Of a stretch of DNA of 64,000 nucleotides, positions 15,473 through 63,147 are shown piece by piece. A program made the translations under genes and the position numbers. Each line of letters starts with the position of its first letter. The first letter of the stretch is position 1. Below the pieces are notes generated by a model. It did no database searches, was not told the DNA's origin, and saw only the letters and a list, made by a program, of their open reading frames with translations. The DNA comes from Rothia santali. GTDB lineage: Bacteria > Actinomycetota > Actinomycetes > Actinomycetales > Micrococcaceae. The stretch lies in the NCBI RefSeq assembly GCF_024199905.1, contig NZ_JANAFB010000017.1:1-64000 (forward strand), read 5' to 3'.

Positions 15473-15545
15473 GCCTCAGTAGCTCAGTGGATAGAGCAGG
15501 AGCCTTCTAATCTCTTGGTCGGGGGTTCGACTCCCTCCTGGGGCA
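15473..15545 (+). tRNA. tRNA-Arg (TCT anticodon), prophage integration site
   Basis: A 73-base cloverleaf: acceptor GCCTCAG with CTGGGGC, D-arm GCTCAGTGGATAGAGC, anticodon loop CTTCTAA with anticodon TCT, T-arm GGGGGTTCGACTCCCTC. The base pair next to the anticodon loop (C31-T39) is a mismatch. From base 15504 (the anticodon loop) to the 3' end the gene is repeated at 56,508. The complete gene is therefore at the left prophage end, its 3' half being supplied by the phage. Confidence 0.93.
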
Positions 15546-15617
15546 CCGACCTCAACCCCGTTCCGATCAGGCCAGATGGCCGGTTGGGGCGGGGTTTTCT
15601 GTGTCCGTGGGTGGTGG
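15504..15617 (+). repeat. attL core repeat (114 bp)
   Basis: Begins in the tRNA-Arg anticodon loop, includes the tRNA 3' half and its terminator, and ends at GTGGGTGGTGG. It is identical by eye to 56508-56621. The first differing base is 15618 (G) against 56622 (T). Confidence 0.95.
15554..15599 (+). terminator. Terminator of tRNA-Arg, inside the att repeat
   Basis: A GC-rich hairpin region (outer ACCCCG with CGGGGT, inner GGCC-AGAT-GGCC) ends in TTTT. It lies 9 bases after the tRNA and is duplicated in attR at 56,558-56,603. Confidence 0.7.
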
Positions 15618-17282: not shown

Positions 17283-17540
17283 GGCGTGAACGCGGCCCCT
17301 GGGTGCACCGGGGGGACACCGATGGGGACCCACCCGGGAGGGAAGGGGACGGAAGAGGACCCCTTCGTCCATTCGCTGGCCGAACGGTCATCCCGCGGGC
17401 CGGTGCGGATGCCCCCGGGTGCGCGGTGTTGGGGAACGGCGCGTCCAGGGGCCGCTTGGCTTCAGTGTAGGAAATGAGGGGGGTGGGTGAGGAAGGCCCG
17501 GGGGTGCGCGGTACGGATGCCGGATGTTGGAGGGAGCGGT
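17283..17540. repeat. Non-coding segment upstream of int, repeated outside the prophage
   Basis: About 255 bases upstream of the integrase resemble 58461-58716, with scattered substitutions and small indels. Shared blocks include GACACCGATGGGG, GGACCCCTTCGTCCAT and CCAGGGGCCGCTTGGCTTCA. No ORF is conserved between the copies, so it is probably regulatory or a phage non-coding region. The stretch between the integrase and the lipoprotein gene (about 17.24-17.63 kb) holds no gene. Confidence 0.75.
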
Positions 17541-37379: not shown

Positions 37380-37958
37380 ATGACCATCCTGACCGCGGCC
37401 ACCGCCGCCCCGCAGATCCTGCCCCCGAAGACCCTCGCCGACGCCAAGATCCGCCTGACCTACTGCACCTACCTCTCCGACCCCGAGAACCCCACCATCG
37501 CCGAGCTCAACGCCGGCATTGACCTGTCCCAGCGCGTGCTGAAGGCCGACTACCGGCTCTCGGCTACGGCTTCCGAGACCGTGGACGACCAGGCCGCCCT
37601 GAGCGACGAGTCCAACCCCGTGGTGCTGGGCCCCTCCAACTACGAGGGGCTCATCAGCATCTTCCGCTGGTTCGACCCCACCCACCTCGGCCGCCACGAC
37701 ACCCTCGGCGACATCGCCTTCCAGGCCCTGAAGGACAAGGGCACCGGCGGGTACATGGTCGCCCGGGAGACCGGCAAGCGGTTCGACGCCGCCTGGGAGG
37801 CCACCGACGAGGTCGACGTCTACGAGATCCTCACCGACACCCCGCAGAAGCCCACCGACAACGGTGGCTTCATCCGCCGCACCGTGCCGCTGAACCCGCA
37901 GCGGGCCTGGCAGAACCGGGCCGTGCGCCCCGCGGTGACCTCGACCGGCGGGCGGTAG
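37380..37958 (+). CDS. Major tail tube protein
   Basis: A 192-residue protein placed just upstream of the tail chaperone. The sequence is beta-rich with LPPKTLADAKIRLTYCTYLS, RVLKADYRLSATASETVDDQ, then GYMVARETGKRFD and DEVDVYEILTDTP, in keeping with tube proteins of long-tailed actinophages. AAGGAGG precedes the ATG. A strong hairpin follows the gene. Confidence 0.82.
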   Translation: MTILTAATAAPQILPPKTLADAKIRLTYCTYLSDPENPTIAELNAGIDLSQRVLKADYRLSATASETVDDQAALSDESNPVVLGPSNYEGLISIFRWFDPTHLGRHDTLGDIAFQALKDKGTGGYMVARETGKRFDAAWEATDEVDVYEILTDTPQKPTDNGGFIRRTVPLNPQRAWQNRAVRPAVTSTGGR

Positions 37959-38122: not shown

Positions 38123-38725
38123 ATGACCGACAGCACCACCCCCGAGACCCTCGCCGCCCGCGCGCTCACCGATCAGGCCCGGCCCGCCGAGCATTCGGCC
38201 CCTGATGCCGAGACCTTCGACCTCGGCGACTGGCTGACCGGCGGCACGGAGCACCGCCTGCGCGAGGTCGTGACCGTCTACCGCGATGCGCACCTGGCCG
38301 CCGACGTCGAACGCATCGAGGCCGCCATGAAGCGCGCCGAGGAGGCGCCGGAGGGCATGGAGTCCATGGGCGACGCCGGCGCCGGCGAGCTCGAACGGGA
38401 GAAGCAGCGGCTGCTCGAGCGGATGGAGGCGGCGAAGGCGGAGGTCGAGCTGTACGCGCTGATCGAGCCCGAGCTGGCCGAGATCCGCGCCGAGCTGGGG
38501 GAGAAGCCGAAGGACTACAACTACCACCAGGACATGGACTACTGGTACCGGATCCTGGCCCGGGCCGCCCGGCTGCAGGGCCGGGCCCTGGAACCGGAGC
38601 AGTGGGCCGCCCTGCACCGGACGATCGGGGCGCAGTTCGCCGCGATCATCCTGCGGTACCAGGCGGCGCAGCAGATCGACGTGACGCCCCGATTTCGCCG
38701 CGGACGCCCTGGCGAGCGGCCGTAA
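38123..38725 (+). CDS. Tail assembly chaperone, short form (gpG-like)
   Basis: A 200-residue acidic helical protein directly before the tape measure module. ATG 38123 is preferred; an upstream extension is low-complexity. Helical segments (LREVVTVYRDAHLAADVERI, then LERMEAAKAEVELYALIEPE) fit chaperones that coat the tape measure during tail assembly. Near its end, ACG-CCC-C offers a slippery site linking to the downstream frame (38691-39071). Confidence 0.78.
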   Translation: MTDSTTPETLAARALTDQARPAEHSAPDAETFDLGDWLTGGTEHRLREVVTVYRDAHLAADVERIEAAMKRAEEAPEGMESMGDAGAGELEREKQRLLERMEAAKAEVELYALIEPELAEIRAELGEKPKDYNYHQDMDYWYRILARAARLQGRALEPEQWAALHRTIGAQFAAIILRYQAAQQIDVTPRFRRGRPGERP

Positions 38726-39071
38726 CCCCGGGGTCCTGCTGGCGCTGAAGACCGGCCGGGCGTGGGGGAAGCCGCCCGGGTTCTTCCTCGGCTCCGGCGA
38801 GGCCTGGAGCGTCCGGGACCGGATCGCGGCGCTCGCCTTCCAGATCGTCGAGCTCGAGCGGTGCCCCGAGTGCGGGAACCCGGTCTCCGTGTGCCGGGAT
38901 CCGGGGATGTCCGGGCGGTTCCGGGTCGAGACGCAGACGTGCTTCGCGAAGGAGGCCGTGGAGTCCGCGCAGCGGGACATCAAGGAGCCGGCGCCGGGTC
39001 AGGTGCTCATCGCGGTGCGGGAGGATCCTGCTGAGCAGACGGGGACGGCGTTTGGGGCTGCTCCGTGGTGA
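38691..39071 (+). CDS. Tail assembly chaperone frameshift extension (gpGT-like)
   Basis: An open frame of 126 codons without its own start. Reading ACG CCC, skipping one C (38690), then GAT TTC joins QQIDVTP to DFAADALASG smoothly; the fused protein would be 315 residues. The extension has a Cys pair (LERCPECGNPVSVC) and ends FGAAPW. A +1 shift at CCC-C explains it best. The last 65 bases overlap the minus-strand gene at 39007. Remnants of this ending recur at 60.45 and 62.58 kb. Confidence 0.72.
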   Translation, partial: DFAADALASGRNPGVLLALKTGRAWGKPPGFFLGSGEAWSVRDRIAALAFQIVELERCPECGNPVSVCRDPGMSGRFRVETQTCFAKEAVESAQRDIKEPAPGQVLIAVREDPAEQTGTAFGAAPW

Positions 39072-39276
39072 CGGGCTGGGCGGGCAGACCGCGTCCTATG
39101 TAGGTTCCCGTGCACACCGCTGTTGTACCGATGATGAAGACAATCAGACTGGTGAAGCCGAAATCGATGTCCCAGGCCCAGCTGGAGAAGTTCATGGCCG
39201 CGCCGATGAAGAAGAGGGCCATGCCCCATCCCTGCAGGTGTTTGCGCCACCTGATACGCCGTGTGACATCGCTCAT
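39007..39276 (-). CDS. Small membrane protein 'a' of the tail-module moron cassette (89 aa)
   Basis: Two hydrophobic segments (GMALFFIGAAMNFSSWAW and LIVFIIGTTAVCTGTYI) separated by the motif WDIDFGF, with a basic N-terminus and a Pro/Gln-rich tail (TTEQPQTPSPSAQQDPPAPR). The tail is coded antisense to the end of the chaperone gene. TATGCT stands exactly 6 bases before the ATG with no ribosome site, so the mRNA is probably leaderless. A same-length relative is at 62586-62855 and a dead copy at 60527-60784. Function unknown. Confidence 0.75.
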   Translation of the reverse strand: MSDVTRRIRWRKHLQGWGMALFFIGAAMNFSSWAWDIDFGFTSLIVFIIGTTAVCTGTYIGRGLPAQPVTTEQPQTPSPSAQQDPPAPR

Positions 39277-39282
39277 AGACTG

Positions 39283-39288
39283 AGCATA
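39283..39288 (-). promoter_or_regulatory. -10 box (TATGCT) of protein 'a'
   Basis: TATGCT, 6 bases before ATG 39276 on the minus strand. The same hexamer and spacing precede the genes starting at 53901 and 62855. Confidence 0.6.
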
Positions 39289-39356
39289 GAGGCGAGGTGC
39301 GCGCTGAACCTAGGGCCCCGGCTTCGCGGGATGGGCCGGGGATCCTCGGCTGGGAA

Positions 39357-39623
39357 TCACCGCTCGATCTGTGGCGCACCTTCGTTCCGGAGGGCAATTC
39401 CGTCGGCGGGCTCCCGGGTGGCCGCGATGCGCTTGAGGTACCCGATGACGATCAGCACGACGCCGAGACCGGCCGGCGGGATCAGCAGCAGCACCAGCCC
39501 CAGCAATGCCAGGCCGTAGAACCAGGCCAAGACCAGCAGGCCGAGGAACGCGAGAGCGGTCAACGCGAGGACCACGATGCCCGCGATGATCAGTCCCCGG
39601 CCGGGCAGCCGTCGTTCAGTCAT
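39357..39623 (-). CDS. Small membrane protein 'b' of the moron cassette (88 aa)
   Basis: Nearly all of residues 10-65 is hydrophobic (for example GLIIAGIVVLALTALAFLGL and LLLIPPAGLGVVLIVIGYL), giving two or three membrane passes, followed by LKRIAATREP. The ending IGYLKRIAATR closely matches IGYLQRIAAAR in protein 'c', so the two are paralogues. The start overlaps the end of 'c'. A decayed copy lies at 61414-61708. Confidence 0.75.
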   Translation of the reverse strand: MTERRLPGRGLIIAGIVVLALTALAFLGLLVLAWFYGLALLGLVLLLIPPAGLGVVLIVIGYLKRIAATREPADGIALRNEGAPQIER

Positions 39624-39840
39624 GGCGCACCCGTTCGGAGTCCCGGGCCGCCGCGATGCGCTGGAGGTAGCCGATGAGCATGAAGATCGGCCCGGCGATG
39701 CACAGCAGGATCACCGGCAGTCCGGGCACGCCCCCGCCGAGGGCTGTCGCCACCCCGAGGATCAGCGCGATCAAGAGGTAGGCGATGCCGAAGCCAAGCA
39801 TGGTGTCCCCGGGGAGTCGCTTCTGCTGTGCGCGTGCCAT
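39616..39840 (-). CDS. Small membrane protein 'c' of the moron cassette (74 aa)
   Basis: Two hydrophobic segments (GFGIAYLLIALILGVATAL and LPVILLCIAGPIFMLIGYL) and the paralogous tail motif LQRIAAARDSE. Its ATG directly follows the stop of 'd' and its stop overlaps the start of 'b', so d-c-b form one operon. Its 3' end sequence is also found beside the dead copy of 'b' near 61.71 kb. Confidence 0.75.
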   Translation of the reverse strand: MARAQQKRLPGDTMLGFGIAYLLIALILGVATALGGGVPGLPVILLCIAGPIFMLIGYLQRIAAARDSERVRHD

Positions 39841-40095
39841 TCAATGCTCCTTCGACGATTCGACACGGGTCGCCTCCGCGCCCATCCACGCCGTGACCAG
39901 CCGGGTGAGCCGGGCGAGGTATCCCAGCCCGGCCAGCAGGATGGCCAAGGTCCCCGCCCCGACCGGCGCGGCGGAGGGCTTCTCGAACGTGAGCGCGGTG
40001 AACAGCGTCAGCACCGCGAAGGCACCGATCAGGGCGCTGGCACAGAAGAGCAGGGTCTCGGACAGGGTGCGGGTGGGCACTGGCGGGTCAGTCAT
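39841..40095 (-). CDS. Small membrane protein 'd' of the moron cassette (84 aa)
   Basis: Two hydrophobic segments (LLFCASALIGAFAVLTLF and GAGTLAILLAGLGYLARL), the second ending in a weak form of the family motif (LGYLARLTR), and a charged tail. It is the first gene of the d-c-b operon. TACTCT stands 6 bases before the ATG without a ribosome site. The ATG is 24 bases from the divergent tape measure start, and the promoter overlaps that gene's ribosome site. Confidence 0.75.
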   Translation of the reverse strand: MTDPPVPTRTLSETLLFCASALIGAFAVLTLFTALTFEKPSAAPVGAGTLAILLAGLGYLARLTRLVTAWMGAEATRVESSKEH

Positions 40096-40101
40096 GGCAA
40101 C

Positions 40102-40107
40102 AGAGTA
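40102..40107 (-). promoter_or_regulatory. -10 box (TACTCT) of the d-c-b operon
   Basis: TACTCT, 6 bases before ATG 40095 on the minus strand. It adjoins the GAGGTGAT ribosome site of the tape measure gene on the other strand. Confidence 0.55.
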
Positions 40108-40119
40108 GAGGTGATTCGG

Positions 40120-43100
40120 GTGGCAGATCGCAGCGTCACGATCCGTTTGAAGGCCGAGATCTCGGCGTTCAAGGCCGCGATGGCCGAGGCGGCGTCGGCG
40201 TCGAAATCCGCGGCTGCGCAGATCGATCAGGCGTTTGCCAAGGTCGGGGCGCAGGGAGCCGAGGGCGCGCAGCGTGCCGGGGACGCCTACCGGCGGGCCG
40301 GAACTGATGCCGCGAGCTCGGCACAGGGGATTGGTGAGGCCTACGGCGCGGCTGGCGTTCGCGCAGGTGAAGCCGCCGAGGGGGTTAAGTCCCCCTGGGC
40401 CGACGCCGGCGATACCGCGGAGAAGTCCGCCGACGGAGTGGGCCAGGCCTACGACGTCGCCGGCGCTGAAGCAAAGGCCGCAGCTGACGGGATCAAGCCC
40501 GGATGGGAGCAGGCCGGTGACGCTGCCGCGCAGTCAGCGGACGGCGTCGGCCAAGCGTACGACGAGGCCGGTGATGCCGCGGCCGCCGCGGCTCAGGACG
40601 TCCGCCCGCCCTGGGAGCAGGCGGGAGATTCTGCCGAGCACTCCGCCGACGGCGTGGGCGAGGCCTACGACCAGGCGGGCGACCAGGCCGCGGCCGCCGC
40701 GCACGACGTCGCCGAGCCCTGGAACCAGGCCGGCACGACCGCCGAGAGCTCCGCCGACGGGGTCGGCCAGGCCTACGCCGAGGCCGGCGCCGACGCCGCG
40801 AACGCCGCCGACGGCGTCGCCACCCCGTGGGAGCAGGCCGGCCAGGCGGGGGAGCAGGCCGGCCACAAGACCGGGCAGTCCTTCGACGAGGCCGGGACCA
40901 AGGCCGAGGGCGCCGGCGAGCGCGCCGGCTCCGTCTGGGCCAGCATGGGGTCCTCGGTGACCGGGTCGATCAACGGCGTGATCGCCAAGCAGCGCGAGCA
41001 CTCCGCCGAGTGGGACACGATCGCCAACCGCTCGGCCATCGCCGGCGGCGCGGTGGTGGGCGCCGTCGGGCTGGTGGTGAAGTCTGCGATGTCTTGGGAG
41101 TCCGCGTGGGCCGGGGTGACCAAGACGGTCGACGGGACGCCGCAGCAGCTCAAGGCCGTGGAGGACGGGCTGCGCGGCATGGCCCGGGAGCTGCCGGCCT
41201 CGCACCAGGATCTGGCCGCGGTGGCCGAGGCGGCCGGGCAGCTCGGGGTGCAGACCCCGCATGTCCTGGCGTTCACCCGGACCATGATCGACATGGGGGA
41301 GTCCACCAACCTCTCCGCCGAGGACGCCGCGACCAGCATCGCGCGGTTCACCAACATCATGGGCACCGTCGGCGAGGTCGGGGAGTCCGCCTACTCCCGG
41401 GTGGGGTCCGCGCTGGTGCGGCTGGGCAACAACTTCGCGACCACGGAGCGGGAGATCGTGGAGATGTCCCTGCGCCTGGCCGGCGCCGGGGCGCAGATGA
41501 ACATGACCGAGGGCGACGTGCTCGGGATCGCCGCGGCCATGTCCTCGGTGGGCATCGAGGCCGAGGCGGGCGGCACCGCCATGTCCATGTCGCTGAAGAA
41601 GATCGACAACGCGGTGCGCACCAGCTCGACCGAGCTGGAGACCTTCGCGCGGATCTCCGGGACGTCGGCGGAGGAGTTCACGAACACGTGGCGGGAGAAC
41701 CCCGCCCAGGCCCTGGACTCCTTCGTGCAGGGGCTCGGACGGGTGAAGGACGAGGGCGGGTCGGTCTCGCAGGTCCTCACCGAGCTGGGGATCCGGGGGA
41801 TCCGCGAGCAGGACGCGTTCCTGCGCCTGGCGGGAGCCTCCGACATCCTCACCAGCTCGCTTCACCAGAGCAACGACGGATTCCGGGAGAACATCGACCG
41901 CGTGGAGGAGGCCGGGAAGCGGTACGAGACCACCGAGTCCCGGGCCCGCATCGCGTGGAACTCGATCCAGGACGCCGCGGTCACCGCCGGCGCGGCGATC
42001 CTGCCCGCGGTGGCCGGCATGGCCGATGCCCTGGCCGGGCTGGCCGGGTGGTTCAGCAGTCTGCCCCAGCCCGTCATGGGGACGGTCGTCGCCATCGCGG
42101 GGCTCGCCGGCGCGGCCGCCCTGGCCGTCGGCGGCGGGATGAAGCTCATCGCGTGGCTGGCCCAGACCAAGGCGGCGCTGGACACCCTCGGGGTCGCCAC
42201 CACCGGGCTCGGCGGGAAGCTGAGCAAGGTCGGCAAGTACGCGGCCGGGGCCGCCGCCGGATTCGCGGTCCTGCAGGGCCTCGGCGCCGTATTCAGCCGC
42301 GACGACGTGCTCTCGGTGGACCAGATGACCAACGCCATGTCCGGGGCGGAGTTCAACGTCAGCCGGCTCGACGACGCGTTCCGCAACGCCGACTTCGTCA
42401 ACGGCCGCGGCCGCTGGTCCCTCGAGGGGACGGTGTCCGGCATCGACGGGATCGGCAGCGCCATCGCCCGCATCAACGACAGCGGCGGCGTCGACCACCT
42501 GACCCGGGTCATGGGCGGGCTGACGGCGTCGACCCCGGCGGTGGGGAAGCTGGCCAAGAGCCTGGGCAACGTCGACGAATCACTCGCCGGGATGTTCCGG
42601 GACGGGAACACCGAACGCGCGGCCCAGGCCTTCCGATCCATCGCGGAGGAGGCCGAGAAGTCCGGGGTGCCGCTCGAGGTCACCGCCAAGCTGTTCCCGC
42701 AGCTGCGCGACGCGGTCATCCAGTACGCCAACAGCCTCAACGTGACCCTCACGCCCCAGGAGCAGCTGCAGGCCATGATGGGCGATCTGCCGCCGAAGCT
42801 GCTGGACGCGGCCGAGTCGGCGCAGGCGGCCGGCGGCGGGCTCGAGGGCGCCGCCGGTGCCATGGGCCTGCTCGGAGGGGAGGCCGCGGACACCCAGAAG
42901 ACCCTGGACGACGTCATGCAGAGCCTGCGCCAGCTCGGGGAGATCAACATGACCGCCGCCGAGGCGACCGGTGCCTATCACGAGTCCCTGCGCGAGCTGC
43001 ACGGCGCCCTGGCGGAGAACGCCTTCGCCTTCGACGAGGCCACCGGCATGCTCGACACCACCACCGAGAGCGGGTACGCCGCGCAGAAGGCGTTCAACGA

Positions 43101-44121
43101 GCTCGGCCGCGCCGGGTGGGACATGGCCGAGGCCATGGCCAAGCAGGGTGCCTCCCAGGCGGAGGTGCAGAACGCGCTGCGCACCACCTACGACGACCTG
43201 GTCGACACCGGCGTCCGGTTCGGGCTGACCAGCGAACAGGCGGATAGCCTCGCGCGGGCTGTGCTCGGCATCGAGCCGGAGGTCTCCATCGACTCGTGGA
43301 TGAGCGACGCGGCCAAGCAGATGGCCGAGGGCACCCAGTCCTCGCTCAGCGACATCGAGCGCCAGATCGCCGTGCGGACCTGGATGGGCGAGGACATCGT
43401 CCTCCAGGCCGTGCGGTCCCGCGCCGCGGTGCTCGACATCCCGGAGAGCGACGCCGTCGACTCCTGGATGAGCTCGGTGGCCGAGAACAAGGCCAACGAC
43501 ACCACCGCCGCCATCCTCCGCATCCCCAAGGACACCCGCATCTCCTCGTGGATGAGCGAGAACGCCCTGAACACCGCCCGGGAGACCGCGCGGGCGATCG
43601 AGCGGATCCCCACGTTCAGGGAGGTCCAGATCAAGGTCATCGAGTCGCACCAGAAGTTCTCGCTCGGCGGCGTGGAGAAGTCGCAGGCGGGGTACTCCGC
43701 CGGCGGATCGGTGATCGAGGGGCTGCGGGGCATGGCCGCGGGCGGGCTCGTGCCGGGCACACCGCCGGCCGACCCCACCGCGGACAACGTCTTCGCGCGC
43801 GTGGCCGACACCGGGGAGCTGATCAAGGTGCGCTCGCAGGAGTTCATCGCCAACGAGCCGGCCGCCCGGAAGAACCGGGCCTGGCTCGAGTGGATGAACG
43901 CCGGCGGGGTGATGCCGGGGTCCCCGCGCGGATTCGCAGCCGGCACCCCGGCCAGCACGACGGCGCCGCGCGGGTTCCCGGCCCGGGCCGGTGGCGCGGA
44001 CGAGATCGCGGCCGCGGTGCACGCGGCGATGCGCTCCTGGCAGCCGGTGGTCAACCTGGGCGGCCGGGAGACCTACGGGTTCATGAAGCAGGTCGAACGG
44101 CGGTACGGGCCGCGCGCGTGA
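40120..44121 (+). CDS. Tape measure protein (TP901 family)
   Basis: About 1,333 residues; sets tail length and is threaded through the tube. GTG 40120 has GAGGTGAT upstream. Residues about 57-236 are five tandem 36-residue repeats (W-x-QAG...SADGVGQAY...AGD). The TP901 core follows (IDMGESTNLSAEDAATSIAR). A hydrophobic stretch (GTVVAIAGLAGAAALAVGGG) lies near residue 655. Near 1060-1170 four 28-residue repeats each carry a Trp-Met pair (SWMS or TWMG). The C-terminal part is Gly-rich. Confidence 0.92.
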   Translation: MADRSVTIRLKAEISAFKAAMAEAASASKSAAAQIDQAFAKVGAQGAEGAQRAGDAYRRAGTDAASSAQGIGEAYGAAGVRAGEAAEGVKSPWADAGDTAEKSADGVGQAYDVAGAEAKAAADGIKPGWEQAGDAAAQSADGVGQAYDEAGDAAAAAAQDVRPPWEQAGDSAEHSADGVGEAYDQAGDQAAAAAHDVAEPWNQAGTTAESSADGVGQAYAEAGADAANAADGVATPWEQAGQAGEQAGHKTGQSFDEAGTKAEGAGERAGSVWASMGSSVTGSINGVIAKQREHSAEWDTIANRSAIAGGAVVGAVGLVVKSAMSWESAWAGVTKTVDGTPQQLKAVEDGLRGMARELPASHQDLAAVAEAAGQLGVQTPHVLAFTRTMIDMGESTNLSAEDAATSIARFTNIMGTVGEVGESAYSRVGSALVRLGNNFATTEREIVEMSLRLAGAGAQMNMTEGDVLGIAAAMSSVGIEAEAGGTAMSMSLKKIDNAVRTSSTELETFARISGTSAEEFTNTWRENPAQALDSFVQGLGRVKDEGGSVSQVLTELGIRGIREQDAFLRLAGASDILTSSLHQSNDGFRENIDRVEEAGKRYETTESRARIAWNSIQDAAVTAGAAILPAVAGMADALAGLAGWFSSLPQPVMGTVVAIAGLAGAAALAVGGGMKLIAWLAQTKAALDTLGVATTGLGGKLSKVGKYAAGAAAGFAVLQGLGAVFSRDDVLSVDQMTNAMSGAEFNVSRLDDAFRNADFVNGRGRWSLEGTVSGIDGIGSAIARINDSGGVDHLTRVMGGLTASTPAVGKLAKSLGNVDESLAGMFRDGNTERAAQAFRSIAEEAEKSGVPLEVTAKLFPQLRDAVIQYANSLNVTLTPQEQLQAMMGDLPPKLLDAAESAQAAGGGLEGAAGAMGLLGGEAADTQKTLDDVMQSLRQLGEINMTAAEATGAYHESLRELHGALAENAFAFDEATGMLDTTTESGYAAQKAFNELGRAGWDMAEAMAKQGASQAEVQNALRTTYDDLVDTGVRFGLTSEQADSLARAVLGIEPEVSIDSWMSDAAKQMAEGTQSSLSDIERQIAVRTWMGEDIVLQAVRSRAAVLDIPESDAVDSWMSSVAENKANDTTAAILRIPKDTRISSWMSENALNTARETARAIERIPTFREVQIKVIESHQKFSLGGVEKSQAGYSAGGSVIEGLRGMAAGGLVPGTPPADPTADNVFARVADTGELIKVRSQEFIANEPAARKNRAWLEWMNAGGVMPGSPRGFAAGTPASTTAPRGFPARAGGADEIAAAVHAAMRSWQPVVNLGGRETYGFMKQVERRYGPRA
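40288..40827 (+). repeat. Five tandem 108-bp repeats in the tape measure gene
   Basis: The Trp or Tyr codons marking each unit are at 40288, 40396, 40504, 40612 and 40720, and the next unit begins at 40828: an exact 108-base step. Confidence 0.9.
43297..43632 (+). repeat. Four tandem 84-bp repeats in the tape measure gene
   Basis: Trp codons at 43297, 43381, 43465 and 43549 mark 28-residue units containing SWMS/TWMG and a following helix. Confidence 0.85.
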
Positions 44122-56507: not shown

Positions 56508-56621
56508 CTTCTAATCTCTTGGTCGGGGGTTCGACTCCCTCCTGGGGCACCGACCTCAACCCCGTTCCGATCAGGCCAGATGGCCGGTTGGGGCGGGGTT
56601 TTCTGTGTCCGTGGGTGGTGG
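56508..56621 (+). repeat. attR core repeat with 3' half of tRNA-Arg
   Basis: Second copy of the 114-bp core. The first 42 bases are the tRNA 3' half (anticodon loop to discriminator) without the 5' half, so it is not a functional tRNA. The terminator hairpin is included. Confidence 0.95.
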
Positions 56622-56973
56622 TGCAGGCACCCCGGTTCTGCCGGAGCTGCCGCTTCCGATAGATCGATCTCGGGCCCCTCCTGCCCGATCCAGGGGGCAT
56701 CGATCCACGTCGGACCACGTCTCCACCGGCCGAATTCGTCCGCAGCCCCGCCAGCTACATGGCGTTGTGCACGTCGACCATGGTCGTCGCATCGGTGGAA
56801 CGGCCGACCCGGAACTAAATCGTCGTGTCGCCATCTCGTGCAAATACCATGTTCCGCGAGGAGACAGCGCACAGCTCATTCGTTCGGGGGAGGGCCGGGT
56901 GTTCAGCTCGTCCCCCTCCCATCCTCCACCGACGGTCCACGGCCGTGATAGAAGCAGGCCGTAGACTGGCGTG
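56622..56973. other. Chromosomal flank after attR, no gene seen
   Basis: About 350 bases before the phospholipase D gene. It should hold that gene's promoter and was directly downstream of tRNA-Arg before integration. No coding feature is supported. Confidence 0.4.
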
Positions 56974-58236
56974 ATGACGAACCCTCACAGCTCCGCCCTA
57001 ACCCGCGTCGGTCGCCTGGCCGGGAAGACGGCACTGATCGGAGCGGGTGGCCTGGTCGGCGCGCAGCTCACCGTCGTCGGCGCCCTCGCCACGATCGACG
57101 GACTCAAACGACGCGGCCGCAAGAAGCGGGACGCCCAGCGGCCCGGCACCTTCCACTCTGAGGTGGAGGATTCCCAGATCAGCGTCTATACGTCGGGAGA
57201 CACCCTCTACGACGACATGATCGAAGCTATCGACGGCGCCCGGGATGCGATCCAGCTCGAGACCTACATCTGGAAGTGCGACGAGGCGGGCCAGCGATTC
57301 CTCGACGCCCTGAACCGGGCGGCGGAGCGCGGAGTCCGCGTCCACGTCATCTACGACGGGTTCGCCAACCTCGTGGTGAAGCCGTCCTTCTTCCGCCAGT
57401 TCTCCGATCGGATCAACGTCTGGCGCATGCCGGTGGTGCGGCGGGGCTTCTGGAAGGGCGTGATCCGCCATACCGGCCTGGACCACTCCAAGATCCTGGT
57501 CGTGGACGACCACGCCGCATTCGTGGGCGGGTACAACATCGGCTCGATGTACGCCCGTCAGTGGCGGGACACCCACGTGCGGGTGCTCGGGCCCGCCGCG
57601 TGGGGACTGCGCAACTCCATCGCACGGAAGTGGAACACCGCGCATGAGACGAAGGACCAGATCCAGTGGGTTCCCGCCGACGGCTGGAAGCCGGAGGTGC
57701 GGGTGGCCTCCAACATCCCGCTGCAGCTCGTCTACCCCATCCGCGGCGTGTACCTGGTGGCGATCGAGCGCGCCGTCCACCACATCTACGTCAACACGCC
57801 GTACTTCGTGCCCGACCAGCAGATCCTCAACGCGCTGCTCGACGCTGCGCGCCGCGGGGTCGACGTGCGGGTGATCCTGCCCAAGGAGTCCAACCACATC
57901 GTCGCGGACTGGGTGTCGCGAGGCTTCTACAACGAGATGCTCGACGCCGGCGTCACGATCCTGTTGTACCGGCCCTCGATGATCCACGCCAAGACCACCA
58001 CGATCGACGGCCAGTGGTCCACCGTGGGCACGGCGAACATCGATCGGCTCTCCCTCTCGTTCAACTACGAGACCAACGTCGAGATCATCAACTCAGCGTT
58101 CGCGGCGGAGATGGAGAAGGTCTTCGCCGCCGACGCGGAGCACTGCGATGTCCTGACGACGTCGGCCTGGAGCGATCGCCCGCCGATGGCGCGCGTCGCC
58201 GAGGCGATCCTGGCGCCGCTGCGCCCCTTCCTGTGA
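56974..58236 (+). CDS. Phospholipase D family / cardiolipin synthase-like protein
   Basis: A 420-residue enzyme with one N-terminal hydrophobic segment (TALIGAGGLVGAQLTVVGAL) and two phospholipase D motifs, HSKILVVDD near residue 172 and HAKTTTIDG near 336. Flanking segments QLETYIWKCDEAGQRFLDAL and YVNTPYFVPDQQILNALLDA are typical of cardiolipin synthases. It is shorter than the enzyme at 9672-11438 and lacks its insert. ATG 56974 is chosen; GTG 56971 overlaps it. Confidence 0.88.
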   Translation: MTNPHSSALTRVGRLAGKTALIGAGGLVGAQLTVVGALATIDGLKRRGRKKRDAQRPGTFHSEVEDSQISVYTSGDTLYDDMIEAIDGARDAIQLETYIWKCDEAGQRFLDALNRAAERGVRVHVIYDGFANLVVKPSFFRQFSDRINVWRMPVVRRGFWKGVIRHTGLDHSKILVVDDHAAFVGGYNIGSMYARQWRDTHVRVLGPAAWGLRNSIARKWNTAHETKDQIQWVPADGWKPEVRVASNIPLQLVYPIRGVYLVAIERAVHHIYVNTPYFVPDQQILNALLDAARRGVDVRVILPKESNHIVADWVSRGFYNEMLDAGVTILLYRPSMIHAKTTTIDGQWSTVGTANIDRLSLSFNYETNVEIINSAFAAEMEKVFAADAEHCDVLTTSAWSDRPPMARVAEAILAPLRPFL

Positions 58237-58460: not shown

Positions 58461-58716
58461 GACGTGAGCGCGGCCCCTGGATGCCACGGGGGACACCGAT
58501 GGGGCCCACCCGGGAGGATGGGGGACAGGAGTGGACCCCTTCGTCCATCCGCTGGCCAGGCGGCCGTGCCGCCGGCCGGTGCGGATGCCCCCGGGTGTGC
58601 GGTGTCAGGGTGCCGCTGCGTCCAGGGGCCGCTTGGCTTCAGTCTAAGAACTGAAGGGGGAGGGTGAGGAAGAGCCCGTTGCACACGGTATGGATACCAG
58701 GTGGTCGGAGCAATCG
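58461..58716. repeat. Diverged copy of the region upstream of the prophage integrase
   Basis: Aligns by eye with 17283-17540 over about 255 bases, for example GACACCGATGGGG, GGACCCCTTCGTCCAT, GGTGCGGATGCCCCCGGGTG and CCAGGGGCCGCTTGGCTTCA. No integrase gene adjoins this copy, so it is a relic of a second related element. Confidence 0.8.
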
Positions 58717-58947: not shown

Positions 58948-59643
58948 GTGGTGAATTGCGTGGCCGTCCTCTCCTCGCAGTCAAGCAGACCAGTGCGAAT
59001 CTTCTCTGGGTTTTTCGTCCTGGCGATGGGCGTCGTTGCGGTATGCGTCACGTGGCAGCCGTTTGCAGGACTCTCCTCCTCCGGTAAGGCGTGGGGGTGG
59101 ATCTTTCTGGCGCTGGGTGCGATCACGGCACTGCTGGGATGGCGGCTGCTGTGGGGAAGGCGGAGCGGCAAGGAGCTGCTGGTGGTGGGGGAGCCCACTC
59201 GGATCTTTGTTCTGGTGGGCGCCGCCTGCGTGCTGTTCGCTCTGTTCCTGATGTGGATTCTCTTCGCGACCGAGCCCGAGGGAAGCGCCACCTATGTGTT
59301 CCTGCCGGCAAGTTGCGGGCTGGGGTCGGCCTTGTGTGTTCGTGGCCTGTTTTCCTTGACGGCTCCTCCACGTCATCCCGTTCAATGGAGGATCCCCGCT
59401 GCTTATCGACGGCGATCCAGGTGGCTGGTTCCGCTCATGTTCGTGGGTGGGATGATCGCCGTCCTGCTCGGGTTTGCCGGGGAGATCTGGGACACCGATG
59501 AAGGGAAGCCTGGTCTGGTGGGCGCAGGGATCTGGTGGATTGTCGCAGCCGTTGTTTTTGCCCACCTCGCGTGGGGTGGGAACGCCTCGAGGAATAGCGA
59601 GCAGCCATCTGATCCTGAGCCTGCGGGACAGAACGAGGGATGA
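58948..59643 (+). CDS. Multi-pass membrane protein, unknown function (231 aa)
   Basis: Hydrophobic segments near residues 18-36, 48-66, 85-108, 118-135, 160-178 and 190-210 suggest five or six membrane passes. Loops are short and the tail is acidic (SEQPSDPEPAGQNEG). A GTG start at 58948 is 11 bases after GGAGG; the start is uncertain. Base composition is less GC-rich than the chromosome left of the prophage. No family recognised. Confidence 0.65.
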   Translation: MVNCVAVLSSQSSRPVRIFSGFFVLAMGVVAVCVTWQPFAGLSSSGKAWGWIFLALGAITALLGWRLLWGRRSGKELLVVGEPTRIFVLVGAACVLFALFLMWILFATEPEGSATYVFLPASCGLGSALCVRGLFSLTAPPRHPVQWRIPAAYRRRSRWLVPLMFVGGMIAVLLGFAGEIWDTDEGKPGLVGAGIWWIVAAVVFAHLAWGGNASRNSEQPSDPEPAGQNEG

Positions 59644-59690
59644 TGGTCATCTTTATCTTGGCCGCACTAGCCACCCACGGCACGCCTGCG

Positions 59691-59813
59691 CAATGACTGA
59701 GGGCTCATCGAACGAGCATTTGGACGTGTCGGGATCCCAGAGGGGCGCCCCATCCCAAGAGACCTCGTCGGAAGACTTCAACCCGGGGGCATCAATCTGG
59801 GGTGATGACCCAG
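59691..59813 (+). repeat. 120-bp direct repeat, left copy
   Basis: Resembles 61744-61866 with scattered differences. Shared blocks include GGCGCCCCATCCC and GAGACCTCGTCG. Both copies begin ATGACTG and are open for 25-45 codons (GAPSQETSSEDFNPG and GAPSRETSSKDFNPG), perhaps the decayed N-terminus of a gene. Confidence 0.75.
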
Positions 59814-60426: not shown

Positions 60427-60545
60427 AGCACTGCCACGAGAGTTGGGAGCAAGGCGAAGGAAGCCGCGGAGTCCACAGGGCAGGGCCTGAATGATCCAGT
60501 GCTGGGGCGGGTGATCACCGCGATGCGGGAGGATCTTGAGTCGGG
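60427..60545 (+). pseudogene. Remnant of the tail chaperone C-terminus, first copy
   Basis: Reads KAKEAAESTGQGLNDP and VITAMREDLES, against AKEAVESAQRDIKEP and VLIAVREDPAE in the prophage chaperone extension. Only the end of the gene is present. It is followed on the minus strand by a dead copy of protein 'a', the same order as at 39.0 kb. Confidence 0.75.
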
Positions 60546-60784
60546 GACGAGGCGGCACTCGGAGCGACTCAACGGTGCTGGGTTTGGCCGGCACAGTCCG
60601 CGTCCGATATGGGTCCCAGGCAGACTGCCGTCGCACCGATAATGATTAGGATCAGGGTGGTGAAGCCGAAGTCGACGTCCCATGCCCGGTGGAATAGGTT
60701 GAGGACCCCGCCGGTCAGGGTGATGCCCGCACCCCATCCTTAAAGGTGCTTACGTAGCTTCATCCGTCGAGTGGCGTAGTCCAT
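60527..60784 (-). pseudogene. Decayed copy of small membrane protein 'a'
   Basis: Reading from ATG 60784: basic N-terminus ending RKHL, a TAA where the intact gene has Gln, then GWGAGITLTGGVLNLFHRAW, DVDFGFTTLILIIIGATAVC. The WD-x-x-FGF motif is kept. TTTGCT stands 6 bases before the ATG, a damaged form of the intact TATGCT. Confidence 0.85.
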
Positions 60785-61413: not shown

Positions 61414-61740
61414 TCAGCCGGGATCTATTGTGTGGGTCGACGTGCATCCCACTAGGTCAGGTGTAAGACGTTCCTGCGGGCTAGTCGCCGGCCCGCTGTC
61501 GCATGGGTCGCGCATGACAGCGATGCGCTCAAGATGCCCGATGACGACCAGTGCGACGCCGATGCCGGCCGGCGGCAGCAGAAGCAGGACCAGCGCCAGC
61601 ATCGCCAGGCTGCAGAACCCCGAGACCGACGAACTCCACAGCGGTCAGCGCTCAGACCACGATGCCCGCGATGATCGGCCCCCAGCCGGGTAGTCATCGT
61701 TCAGTCATGGCGCACCTGTTCGGATTCCCGGGCCGCTGCT
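61414..61740 (-). pseudogene. Decayed copy of small membrane protein 'b' with the 3' end of 'c'
   Basis: From ATG 61708 it reads MTER, a stop, then LPGWGPIIAGIVV, another stop and ALTAVEFVGL; a shifted frame continues MLALVLLLLPPAGIGVALVV, IGHLERIA. These match protein 'b' (MTERRLPGRGLIIAGIVV and IGYLKRIA). Bases 61709-61740 match the end of 'c' just upstream of 'b' in the prophage. Beyond 61740 the sequence switches to the 120-bp repeat. Confidence 0.82.
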
Positions 61741-61743
61741 ATG

Positions 61744-61866
61744 CAATGACTGCGGACCCATGGAACGAGTGTCTGAACGTGTCAGGATCCCATAGAGGCG
61801 CCCCATCCCGAGAGACCTCGTCGAAAGACTTCAACCCGGGGCATCAATCTGGGGTGGTAACCCACG
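61744..61866 (+). repeat. 120-bp direct repeat, right copy
   Basis: Second copy of 59691-59813. It joins directly to the fragment of protein 'c', marking an old recombination point. Confidence 0.75.
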
Positions 61867-62005: not shown

Positions 62006-62230
62006 ATGGGCAAGCGGCAGAAGCTGTCACTGGCCATCGCTGGCTTCTTCCTCCTGGCCCAGTTCATCCTCGAAATCATCAACGAGGTTTTCCTGGATGG
62101 GCAGATGCCGTTCTACACCCTTCCCCTGTTGGTCTTCATCATGTTCATCGCAGCCCTCATCGCCGTCCACTACAAAGCCAAAGGGGCCGTACCAGAATCT
62201 AACGAAACAGCAGATGGACAGGAGACCTGA
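62006..62230 (+). CDS. Small two-pass membrane protein (74 aa)
   Basis: Segments LSLAIAGFFLLAQFILEIIN and YTLPLLVFIMFIAALIAVHY, with a charged tail. AAAGGGGG lies about 9 bases before the ATG. Its stop overlaps the start of the next small membrane gene (TGATG), so the two are coupled. No family recognised. Confidence 0.65.
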   Translation: MGKRQKLSLAIAGFFLLAQFILEIINEVFLDGQMPFYTLPLLVFIMFIAALIAVHYKAKGAVPESNETADGQET

Positions 62231-62445
62231 TGGGCCGGGACAAGAAAACCGACGCCGGTCTCGTCTTCCCCTGGTTCCTCCCGGGGATTATCCTCGGCGT
62301 CATCATCGGAGCGATCATCGCCCCACAAGAACCAGGCTTCCACTTCTGGCCCTACGCCTTCGCTATGGTCCCCATCATTGGACTCAACCGCCTCATCATG
62401 TACGTCTACTACCGCCGCAAGAGAAACCGGGAAGACGCTGGGTAG
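62230..62445 (+). CDS. Small membrane protein (71 aa)
   Basis: Hydrophobic segments FLPGIILGVIIGAIIA and YAFAMVPIIGLNRLIMYVYY, basic tail (YRRKRNREDAG). ACAGGAGACC precedes the ATG. Coupled to the gene at 62006. Unknown function. Confidence 0.65.
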   Translation: MGRDKKTDAGLVFPWFLPGIILGVIIGAIIAPQEPGFHFWPYAFAMVPIIGLNRLIMYVYYRRKRNREDAG

Positions 62446-62580
62446 GTTCCACCGAGCATGTCTTTTTGAGGGTCGTATATTTTCGAAAGCCTCACCGACC
62501 TCGATCTGTCTTCCTCGTGAGCTACGGGGGCACGGCGGAGGCGCCTCGGTGCTCTGAAGCGCTCACCCATCGAAAAGCCA

Positions 62581-62650
62581 GCTGCTCATCGCGATGCGGG
62601 AGGATCCTGACCGGGAGGCGGGGACGGCATTCGAGGCTGCTCTGTGGTGA
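62581..62650 (+). pseudogene. Remnant of the tail chaperone C-terminus, second copy
   Basis: LLIAMREDPDREAGTAFEAA followed by LW and a stop, against VLIAVREDPAEQTGTAFGAA and PW in the prophage. Only about 22 codons remain. As in the prophage, the end overlaps a minus-strand membrane protein gene. Confidence 0.82.
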
Positions 62651-62855
62651 CCGACTCGTCACGGATTTTCAGGTTGAGGACACCCGCGATGCCGTTGGCT
62701 ATCACGCCCGGAAGAAGGACGTACGGGGATAGCCAGCCGAACTCGACGTCCCAGATCAGCCTCATGATCAGAAGGATTGCGGACGCAATGATCAGGACCG
62801 CTCCAACCACATACAGGAGATTGCGAGTTCTGATGCGGCGAGCGACACGGTCCAT
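62586..62855 (-). CDS. Intact relative of small membrane protein 'a' (89 aa)
   Basis: Exactly the same length as 'a' and the same plan: basic N-terminus, two or three hydrophobic segments (LLYVVGAVLIIASAILLIMR and YVLLPGVIANGIAGVLNL), the motif WDVEFGW between them, and a Pro-rich tail (TTEQPRMPSPPPGQDPPASR) almost identical to that of 'a'. TATGCT is 6 bases before the ATG. Unlike its neighbours it is undamaged, which suggests it is maintained. Confidence 0.75.
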   Translation of the reverse strand: MDRVARRIRTRNLLYVVGAVLIIASAILLIMRLIWDVEFGWLSPYVLLPGVIANGIAGVLNLKIRDESVTTEQPRMPSPPPGQDPPASR

Positions 62856-62931: not shown

Positions 62932-63147
62932 CTACTGCTCTACGATGCCGTTGCCGGTGGATTTCCGCATCTTCCCGCCGAAATGAATGAGGGGCAGGGC
63001 GATGAAAATGATCCAGGCAAGATAGCCAAGATCCGGCCACCCCGCAACGAACGTCGAGATGGACGCCCCGAGGACGAAGACACAGAGAATGCCGCCGACG
63101 AGAATGAGAACTCCGCCGACCGTGCCACGGGTTGAGGTTTCAGCCAT
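62932..63147 (-). CDS. Small two-pass membrane protein (71 aa)
   Basis: Segments GTVGGVLILVGGILCVFVLG and LGYLAWIIFIALPLIHFGG with a short basic tail (KMRKSTGNGIVEQ). TACGGT stands 6 bases before ATG 63147 without a ribosome site, again the leaderless pattern. A longer reading from 63180 lacks a signal. Unknown function. Confidence 0.65.
   Translation of the reverse strand: MAETSTRGTVGGVLILVGGILCVFVLGASISTFVAGWPDLGYLAWIIFIALPLIHFGGKMRKSTGNGIVEQ

What the first reader, a model, noticed from the sequence alone, without database searches (positions are those of the whole stretch)
39007..40095. Reverse-strand cassette of four tiny membrane proteins inside the tail module
Between the tail chaperone and tape measure genes, normally adjacent, lie four minus-strand genes of 74-89 codons. 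Proteins b and c share the ending IGYL-x-RIAA-x-R, and d has a weak form of it. Protein a carries a WD-x-x-FGF motif. Their promoters are private, and one overlaps the tape measure ribosome site, so they should be expressed in the lysogen against late transcription. A paralogous set of membrane proteins here is, as far as I know, undescribed and could act in superinfection exclusion or membrane surveillance.
Basis: partly seen in the sequence, partly recalled or inferred. Interest (0 to 1): 0.8.

Follow-up and report, generated by a model that had tools for sequence, protein, structure and literature searches.

The report
Hidden membrane genes beside tape measure
Inside the tail genes of this prophage sit four tiny backward-facing membrane-protein genes; two of them belong to a previously unnamed family that many related phages carry at exactly the same spot with their own promoter, which makes them good candidates for proteins that stop other phages from injecting DNA.

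Summary
Four minus-strand genes (89, 88, 74, 84 aa) lie between the tail chaperone and tape measure (TMP) genes of a 41-kb prophage bounded by 114-bp repeats. It is not a one-off insertion of decayed genes. Proteins b and c belong to a small two-helix membrane family. Leave-one-out profiles find it in 14 of 33 related loci, always minus strand in this slot; it is also in five GenBank Arthrobacter phages. A sequence-independent control gives 15 of 33 slots against 2 of 302 other windows. A -10 hexamer stands 6-7 nt before the ATG in 25 of 28 starts, as for leaderless transcripts from private promoters. Proteins a and d are not detectably related to b/c. No Pfam, PHROG or PADLOC family fits consistently. 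The slot itself is in print: Gordonia cluster DN phages carry reverse genes there, and HK97 keeps its exclusion moron gp15 there. Best explanation: a lysogen-expressed moron cassette blocking DNA entry of superinfecting siphophages (inferred, about 0.5). There are no expression or function data, and slot proteins do not track TMP type. Phages of Arthrobacter globiformis with different slot proteins make it testable.

The parts
39007..39276 (-). gene a, 89 aa membrane protein with WDIDFGF; 3' end overlaps the chaperone end tail-to-tail by 65 bp
   Evidence: ORF; convincing relatives a' and a'' only in the same contig
39283..39288 (-). -10 hexamer TATGCT, 6 nt before the ATG of a
   Evidence: sequence
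39357..39623 (-). gene b, 88 aa, two-helix membrane protein, slot family
   Evidence: leave-one-out profile E 0.0088 with b and c both left out of training
39616..39840 (-). gene c, 74 aa, two-helix membrane protein, slot family
   Evidence: leave-one-out profile E 2.8e-11; AlphaFold2 single-sequence helical hairpin, mean pLDDT 75.9, pTM 0.50
39841..40095 (-). gene d, 84 aa, two hydrophobic segments, not detectably in the family
40102..40107 (-). -10 hexamer TACTCT, 6 nt before the ATG of d, abutting the TMP ribosome site
   Evidence: sequence
38123..39071 (+). tail assembly chaperone (first frame 38123-38725, second frame to 39071; by position and frame arrangement)
40120..44121 (+). tape measure protein gene
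37380..37958 (+). major tail protein, used to find related loci
   Evidence: Phage_TTP_16 E 2.6e-41
60518..60784 (-). a', decayed relative of a (44% identity, two stops) beside a chaperone 3' fragment (from 60454), outside the prophage
61498..61742 (-). b' with the end of a c copy, decayed (80% DNA identity over 236 bp)
62589..62855 (-). a'', open relative of a (38% identity) beside a chaperone 3' end (62579-62651, 84% DNA identity); also TATGCT-N6-ATG
15504..15617 (.). left copy of a perfect 114-bp repeat that begins inside tRNA-Arg (tct, 15473-15547): probable attL
56508..56621 (.). right copy of the 114-bp repeat: probable attR; prophage about 41.1 kb

Best explanation
It is a moron cassette in a conserved insertion slot of siphophages, most of them probably temperate. 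Shown: a family of about 65-90 aa two-helix membrane proteins sits antisense between chaperone and TMP in many related prophages and phages. The genes carry a -10-like element a fixed 6-7 nt before the ATG, and they differ strongly between otherwise very similar phages. Inferred: these promoters fire from the repressed prophage, the transcripts are leaderless, and the hairpins insert in the cytoplasmic membrane with both ends inside. Inferred further: there they interfere with the tape measure protein or the DNA-entry channel of superinfecting siphophages, so that injection fails. On this reading several proteins (here b, c and perhaps a, d) widen the range of phages excluded.
For: Conserved slot: leave-one-out profiles find the family at E<=1e-3 in 14 of 33 related loci plus the window (c), with no hit elsewhere at that threshold. 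The full profile hits 8 of 19 further loci, namely 5 GenBank phages and 3 prophages; the 3 prophages had been fetched because the profile hit them, so only their position beside a TMP is independent. Sequence-independent control: 15 of 33 slots vs 2 of 302 other windows. Own promoter: -10 hexamer at 6-7 nt in 25 of 28 starts, shuffle mean 2.6, 0 of 2000 reach it (pattern chosen after seeing the sequences). Four genes not seen before (L093, L089, EvePickles, Pitbull), and Hum25 with its start moved, fit by eye. Lifestyle: Faja, Hum25 and Kukla, which carry it, have integrases; LuckyBarnes, Montesquieu and Anansi lack it and show no annotated integrase in the parts read. Diversification: Faja, EvePickles and Kukla have major tail proteins 98.8-100% identical but slot proteins 38-47% and the first 500 TMP residues 61-79%. 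Analogy: HK97 gp15 lies in the same slot, and exclusion by gp15 and Ltp is escaped by changes of tail tube or TMP genes (PMC10883804, passages). Duplication: two tandem genes in L072, a four-helix tandem fusion in L063.
Against: No expression, localisation or exclusion data. Slot protein similarity does not follow TMP similarity (Mantel r 0.07, 193 of 1000 permutations reach it, 19 loci with one slot protein each; TMP N- and C-terminal parts likewise, r 0.02 and -0.03), so a strict cognate pair is not seen. 19 of 33 related loci lack a family member at E<=1e-3, and a phage that is probably temperate (D_HF5_3, annotated antirepressor) lacks it. Two loci (L077, L095) have a two-helix minus-strand ORF in the slot that is not a family member (no hit; E 0.03). 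HK97 gp15 is on the plus strand with one predicted helix (recalled). No -35 element was found by the consensus scan. No relatives of a and d were found in the slot of other phages. b passes the profile only weakly on its own (E 0.0088).
Confidence: 0.5

Rival explanations
1. Lysogen-expressed membrane effectors of an abortive or depolarising defence (RexB, Sbash gp31 or Butters gp31 type): the hairpins sense infection at a later step and open or damage the membrane rather than block injection.
For: Sbash gp31 is proposed to act so (PMC6426596, passages), and Butters gp30 and gp31 are components of a prophage-mediated defence (PMC7542560, abstract and section headings only). The family has promoter-like sequences and is diverse.
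Against: Those systems have a partner gene; here a single hairpin usually stands alone. The position beside the TMP has no special meaning in this reading.
Confidence: 0.15
2. Lysogenic conversion unrelated to phages: the proteins tune the host membrane or a host complex, like other small membrane proteins, and the slot is merely a safe place for morons.
For: Profile members also lie in stretches where no relative of this TMP was detected (15 of 18 fetched, among them L141, L142, L145). Reverse genes in the same slot of Gordonia phage Periwinkle show no hydrophobic segments, so the slot takes other cargo.
Against: Rapid replacement between near-identical phages is more like an arms race than a housekeeping role.
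Confidence: 0.2
3. Holin or antiholin-like lysis regulator: two-helix N-in/C-in hairpins are a holin shape.
For: One of 15 family members has a weak match to an actinobacterial holin model (E 0.0076), and d a weak one to a holin PHROG (E 0.1). An 88 aa two-helix N-in-C-in holin-like protein is described in a mycobacteriophage (PMC13056207, abstract start in the listing).
Against: Hum25 has its own annotated endolysin and holin genes after the tail genes, and the slot gene is antisense to late transcription with promoter-like sequence of its own.
Confidence: 0.07
4. Antisense or promoter function: the minus-strand promoter mainly damps tape measure translation in the lysogen, and the proteins are by-products.
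For: The d promoter abuts the TMP ribosome site; in many relatives the slot start lies close to the TMP start.
Against: Protein sequence is constrained: dN is below dS in all ten pairs tested, most clearly L069/L072b (dN 0.13, dS saturated), least in b/c and a/a''; two glycines are invariant in 15 members.
Confidence: 0.06

Closest known systems
HK97 gp15 (moron, superinfection exclusion; Escherichia phage)
   Same: Small predicted membrane protein in exactly the same slot between chaperone and tape measure gene, labelled moron product (NC_002167 8203-8391); blocks DNA injection, and hybrids with other tail tube and TMP genes escape (PMC10883804, passages); expression from the prophage is recalled
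   Different: Plus strand; one predicted helix and an N-terminus like host YebO (recalled); no profile comparison was run between the two families; here minus strand, two helices, -10 set for a leaderless transcript
Reverse genes of Gordonia cluster DN phages (Periwinkle gp17-gp19)
   Same: Minus-strand genes in the same slot, up to three in a row, in a phage called temperate by its authors (PMC9476921, passages)
   Different: No hydrophobic segments found in gp17-gp19 as annotated and no match to the family profile; gp17 has TACATT 7 nt before its ATG, which does not fit the hexamer pattern used here
Faja gp18, Hum25 gp16, Kukla gp16, EvePickles gp18 (GenBank, 'hypothetical' or 'membrane protein')
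   Same: Same family, slot and strand
   Different: Single genes; starts of Hum25, Kukla and EvePickles appear annotated too far downstream
TP-J34 Ltp, Tuc2009 Sie2009, P22 SieA
   Same: Prophage-made membrane or surface proteins that block DNA injection; Ltp exclusion is overcome by TMP changes (PMC10883804 and PMC3952083, passages)
   Different: ltp lies beside the integrase gene; no homology tested
SNIPE
   Same: Membrane-bound protein that meets the incoming tape measure protein (PMC13190303, passages)
   Different: A nuclease with DUF4041; Pfam showed no such domain in a-d

Membership tests
Slot family described here (two-helix antisense proteins between chaperone and TMP) | profile homology of b and c with their own locus left out | tested here: met
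   c E 2.8e-11, b E 0.0088 (weak on its own, but b is a paralogue of c at E 3e-8)
Slot family described here (two-helix antisense proteins between chaperone and TMP) | homology of a and d to the profile | tested here: not met
   a probability 8%, d 1% by profile comparison; a E 0.02, d E 0.83 by hmmsearch
Slot family described here (two-helix antisense proteins between chaperone and TMP) | -10 hexamer 6-7 nt before the ATG of the first gene of a unit | tested here: met
   a and d; b and c follow d without their own
Superinfection exclusion protein, HK97 gp15 kind | moron between chaperone and TMP genes | tested here: met
Superinfection exclusion protein, HK97 gp15 kind | membrane-spanning segment | tested here: met
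   hydrophobicity, hairpin model of c
Superinfection exclusion protein, HK97 gp15 kind | expression from the prophage | not testable with these tools
   only promoter-like sequence
Superinfection exclusion protein, HK97 gp15 kind | blocks DNA entry of superinfecting phage, escape through TMP or tail tube | not testable with these tools
   bench test proposed
Superinfection exclusion protein, HK97 gp15 kind | sequence similarity to gp15 or YebO | not tested
   no comparison run; no significant Pfam or PHROG model for b or c
Holin | match to a holin family and lysis-module position | tested here: not met
   only weak matches; position is in the tail module
Known defence system in PADLOC-DB | match to any model | tested here: not met
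   0 families for a, b, c, d at E<=0.1; other family members were not scanned

The most novel reading that the evidence does not exclude
The gap between chaperone and tape measure genes is a dedicated, exchangeable exclusion locus of temperate actinophages. It is transcribed antisense from leaderless promoters in the lysogen and filled with fast-changing mini hairpins that recognise tape measure proteins, sometimes amplified into arrays (as here) that add specificities, so that phages of one host form exclusion groups readable from this one slot.
Probability: 0.33. Interest if true: 0.72.

Novelty: new variant of a known kind. Interest (0 to 1): 0.52.

Why it matters
A conserved, unnamed family of small membrane genes with their own promoter-like sequence has been sitting antisense inside the tail operon of published phages, partly with wrong starts. 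If it is an exclusion locus, one place in the genome predicts which temperate phages of a host shut each other out. Phages isolated on one laboratory host (A. globiformis B-2979) already carry different versions, so the question is directly testable.

Tried and rejected
Single-sequence searches of phage records with one relative, c and a gave nothing; the family is too divergent for that. Searches for d and a in 245 genomes each gave, apart from the own genome, 8 and 9 genomes with weak matches (best E 0.002 and 1e-4), mostly inside larger ORFs, not followed up. A profile search of 296 genomes across the phylum found only the own genome at E<=1e-8; this samples few prophages. Many of the 135 of 395 genomes with E<=0.001 are probably chance matches of hydrophobic stretches and are not counted. 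Single family members hit six different Pfam models (E 3e-4 to 0.008, one member each) and one PHROG (E 0.0036), and the profile a GldL chain in the PDB (E 0.006); I take these as chance matches of membrane helices. Co-variation of slot protein and TMP was tested and not found. Scans of viral contigs with P0007, A2 and P0006 and of genome contigs with P0007 and P0006 gave few loci and no new family member (L186 was not searched, and L185 may not reach the slot). An earlier count said 15 of 33 loci for the leave-one-out test; the correct count is 14 of 33 plus the window. The -10 pattern was defined after looking. The 28 starts are 15 slot genes (two of them, L077 and L095, not family members), 8 profile members found later (5 without a TMP), Faja, Kukla, a, a'' and d; start codons were my choice. 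The three misses are L141, L145 and L063 (scored from a TTG upstream of its ATG). Hum25 (L096) was dropped because its annotated start lies inside the gene; b and c were left out as internal genes; a' and two other window ORFs were printed but not counted. L066 and L067 are identical over the 3.5 kb compared, so 33 loci are 32 distinct.

Full report
Observation. They lie between the chaperone (38123-38725, continued in another frame to 39071; named by position) and the tape measure gene (40120-44121). The prophage is bounded by a perfect 114-bp repeat at 15504-15617 and 56508-56621, the left copy beginning in tRNA-Arg(tct), so it is about 41.1 kb. b and c are paralogues (35% over 69 aa, E 3e-8). 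A single-sequence AlphaFold2 model of c is a helical hairpin, residues 10-35 and 40-73, mean pLDDT 75.9.

Not a one-off. Of 395 genomes of the same family, 30 (the own genome included) had a relative of the major tail protein at E<=1e-10, at 34 places. I fetched the 33 others. Between chaperone and TMP many hold a small minus-strand two-helix ORF. A profile of 15 such proteins, rebuilt for each locus without that locus, was run on all its six-frame ORFs of 35 codons or more. It hits 14 of 33 loci and the window at E<=1e-3. Every such hit is on the minus strand in the slot, and no other ORF reaches that threshold. Two of the 14 (L089, with a broken frame, and L093) were never in the training set. 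Since that set came from the same inspection, I also ran a test without sequence similarity: minus-strand ATG ORFs of 45-100 aa with two hydrophobic segments occur in the slot of 15 of 33 loci and in 2 of 302 other windows (Fisher p 3e-15). The profile further hits 8 of 19 loci searched later: GenBank phages Hum25, Pitbull, Faja, EvePickles and Kukla, and prophages L133, L137, L143. The 11 without a hit are LuckyBarnes, Montesquieu, D_HF5_3, Anansi, Nonagon, Periwinkle, L062 and L182-L185. L133, L137 and L143 come from 18 further profile hits that I fetched; these 3 lie just upstream of a TMP relative on the opposite strand, the other 15 had no relative of this TMP in the stretch.

Genes and promoters. 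dN is below dS in all ten pairs tested, most clearly in L069/L072b (dN 0.13, pS 0.76); for b/c and a/a'' the ratio is nearer one (about 0.75 and 0.88) and says little. Upstream of the starts a hexamer fitting NWNNMT stands 6 or 7 nt before the ATG in 25 of 28 genes (shuffle mean 2.6; 0 of 2000), and the count by position peaks only there; 14 of the 25 have TG in the extended -10 position. The pattern was chosen after seeing these sequences. Four genes not seen before (L093, L089, EvePickles, Pitbull) and Hum25 with a corrected start fit it by eye; as L089 resembles L093 and Pitbull resembles Hum25, these are three independent cases. This is the layout of leaderless transcripts, common in actinobacteria (recalled). 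It explains why the annotated starts of Hum25, Kukla and EvePickles look too short. In the window d (then c and b) and a have such hexamers; the d one abuts the tape measure ribosome site. A sigma-70 consensus scan found nothing.

a, d and the debris. a and d do not belong to the b/c family by profile comparison. a has convincing relatives only in this genome: none in 34 other genomes of the genus, and in 245 genomes of the family nine others with weak matches, the best E 1e-4 inside a longer ORF. The own relatives are a' (two stops) and a'' (open), both beside fragments of a chaperone 3' end at 60.4-62.9 kb, outside the right repeat, with a decayed b'/c' between them. I read this as debris of related prophages that carried a similar cassette, so the a-plus-b/c arrangement probably existed in more than one phage.

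Exchange. Faja, EvePickles and Kukla share major tail proteins at 98.8-100% but slot proteins at 38-47% and the first 500 TMP residues at 61-79%. Over 19 loci, one slot protein each, slot protein and TMP distances do not correlate (r 0.07). So the slot gene is replaced often, but not in lockstep with the TMP. Two tandem genes in L072 and a tandem fusion in L063, in the window's own genus, show that the cassette here is an extreme of a tendency to duplicate. L077 and L095 have two-helix minus-strand ORFs in the slot that are not family members.

Function. Carriers checked have integrases (Faja, Hum25, Kukla); three relatives without annotated integrase in the parts read lack the gene; EvePickles and Pitbull were not checked, and D_HF5_3, probably temperate, lacks it. 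The nearest working model is HK97 gp15, in the same slot. gp15 and Ltp block DNA injection and are escaped by changes in tail tube or TMP genes (PMC10883804, passages). I therefore commit to superinfection exclusion at DNA entry, at about 0.5, with membrane-depolarising defence, host-directed conversion, holin-like and antisense roles as rivals.

What is new. [quoted passage not shown] PMC9476921, passages), whose proteins as annotated show no hydrophobic segments and do not match the profile (only Periwinkle was examined). In eight paper searches, with passages of seven papers and the outline of one, I found no description of this protein family or its promoters. No Pfam, PHROG or PADLOC model fits it consistently. 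I file it as a new variant of a known kind: a tail-slot moron.

Limits. No transcript, localisation or exclusion data were available.

Noticed in passing
58463-58678 and 17285-17500: 85% direct repeat between the left arm of the prophage and host-side debris, suggesting remnants of a second related prophage beyond a phospholipase D-like gene (56971-58236, named from its sequence by eye).
   Followed up: partly
59690-59812 and 61743-61864: 87% identical direct repeat inside the debris region, next to decayed cassette pieces.
   Followed up: no
58948-59643 (+): 231 aa ORF with five hydrophobic segments whose C-terminal part resembles protein a (25%, E 0.003 in a search of the window alone).
   Followed up: no
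62006-62445 (+) and 62932-63147 (-): Three more small ORFs in the debris that look hydrophobic by eye (only two were scanned properly).
   Followed up: no
L096, L100, L174, L175: GenBank starts of Hum25 gp16, Kukla gp16 and EvePickles gp18 appear annotated downstream of the likely leaderless ATG; Pitbull carries the gene unannotated.
   Followed up: yes
L134, L135: Family members in stretches that look like prophages (a terminase small subunit-like ORF in L135, by eye) with no relative of this TMP nearby: the gene may also travel outside the tail slot.
   Followed up: partly
40318-40404: ARAGORN calls a tRNA-Ala inside the tape measure gene, most likely a false positive.
   Followed up: no
   Followed up: no
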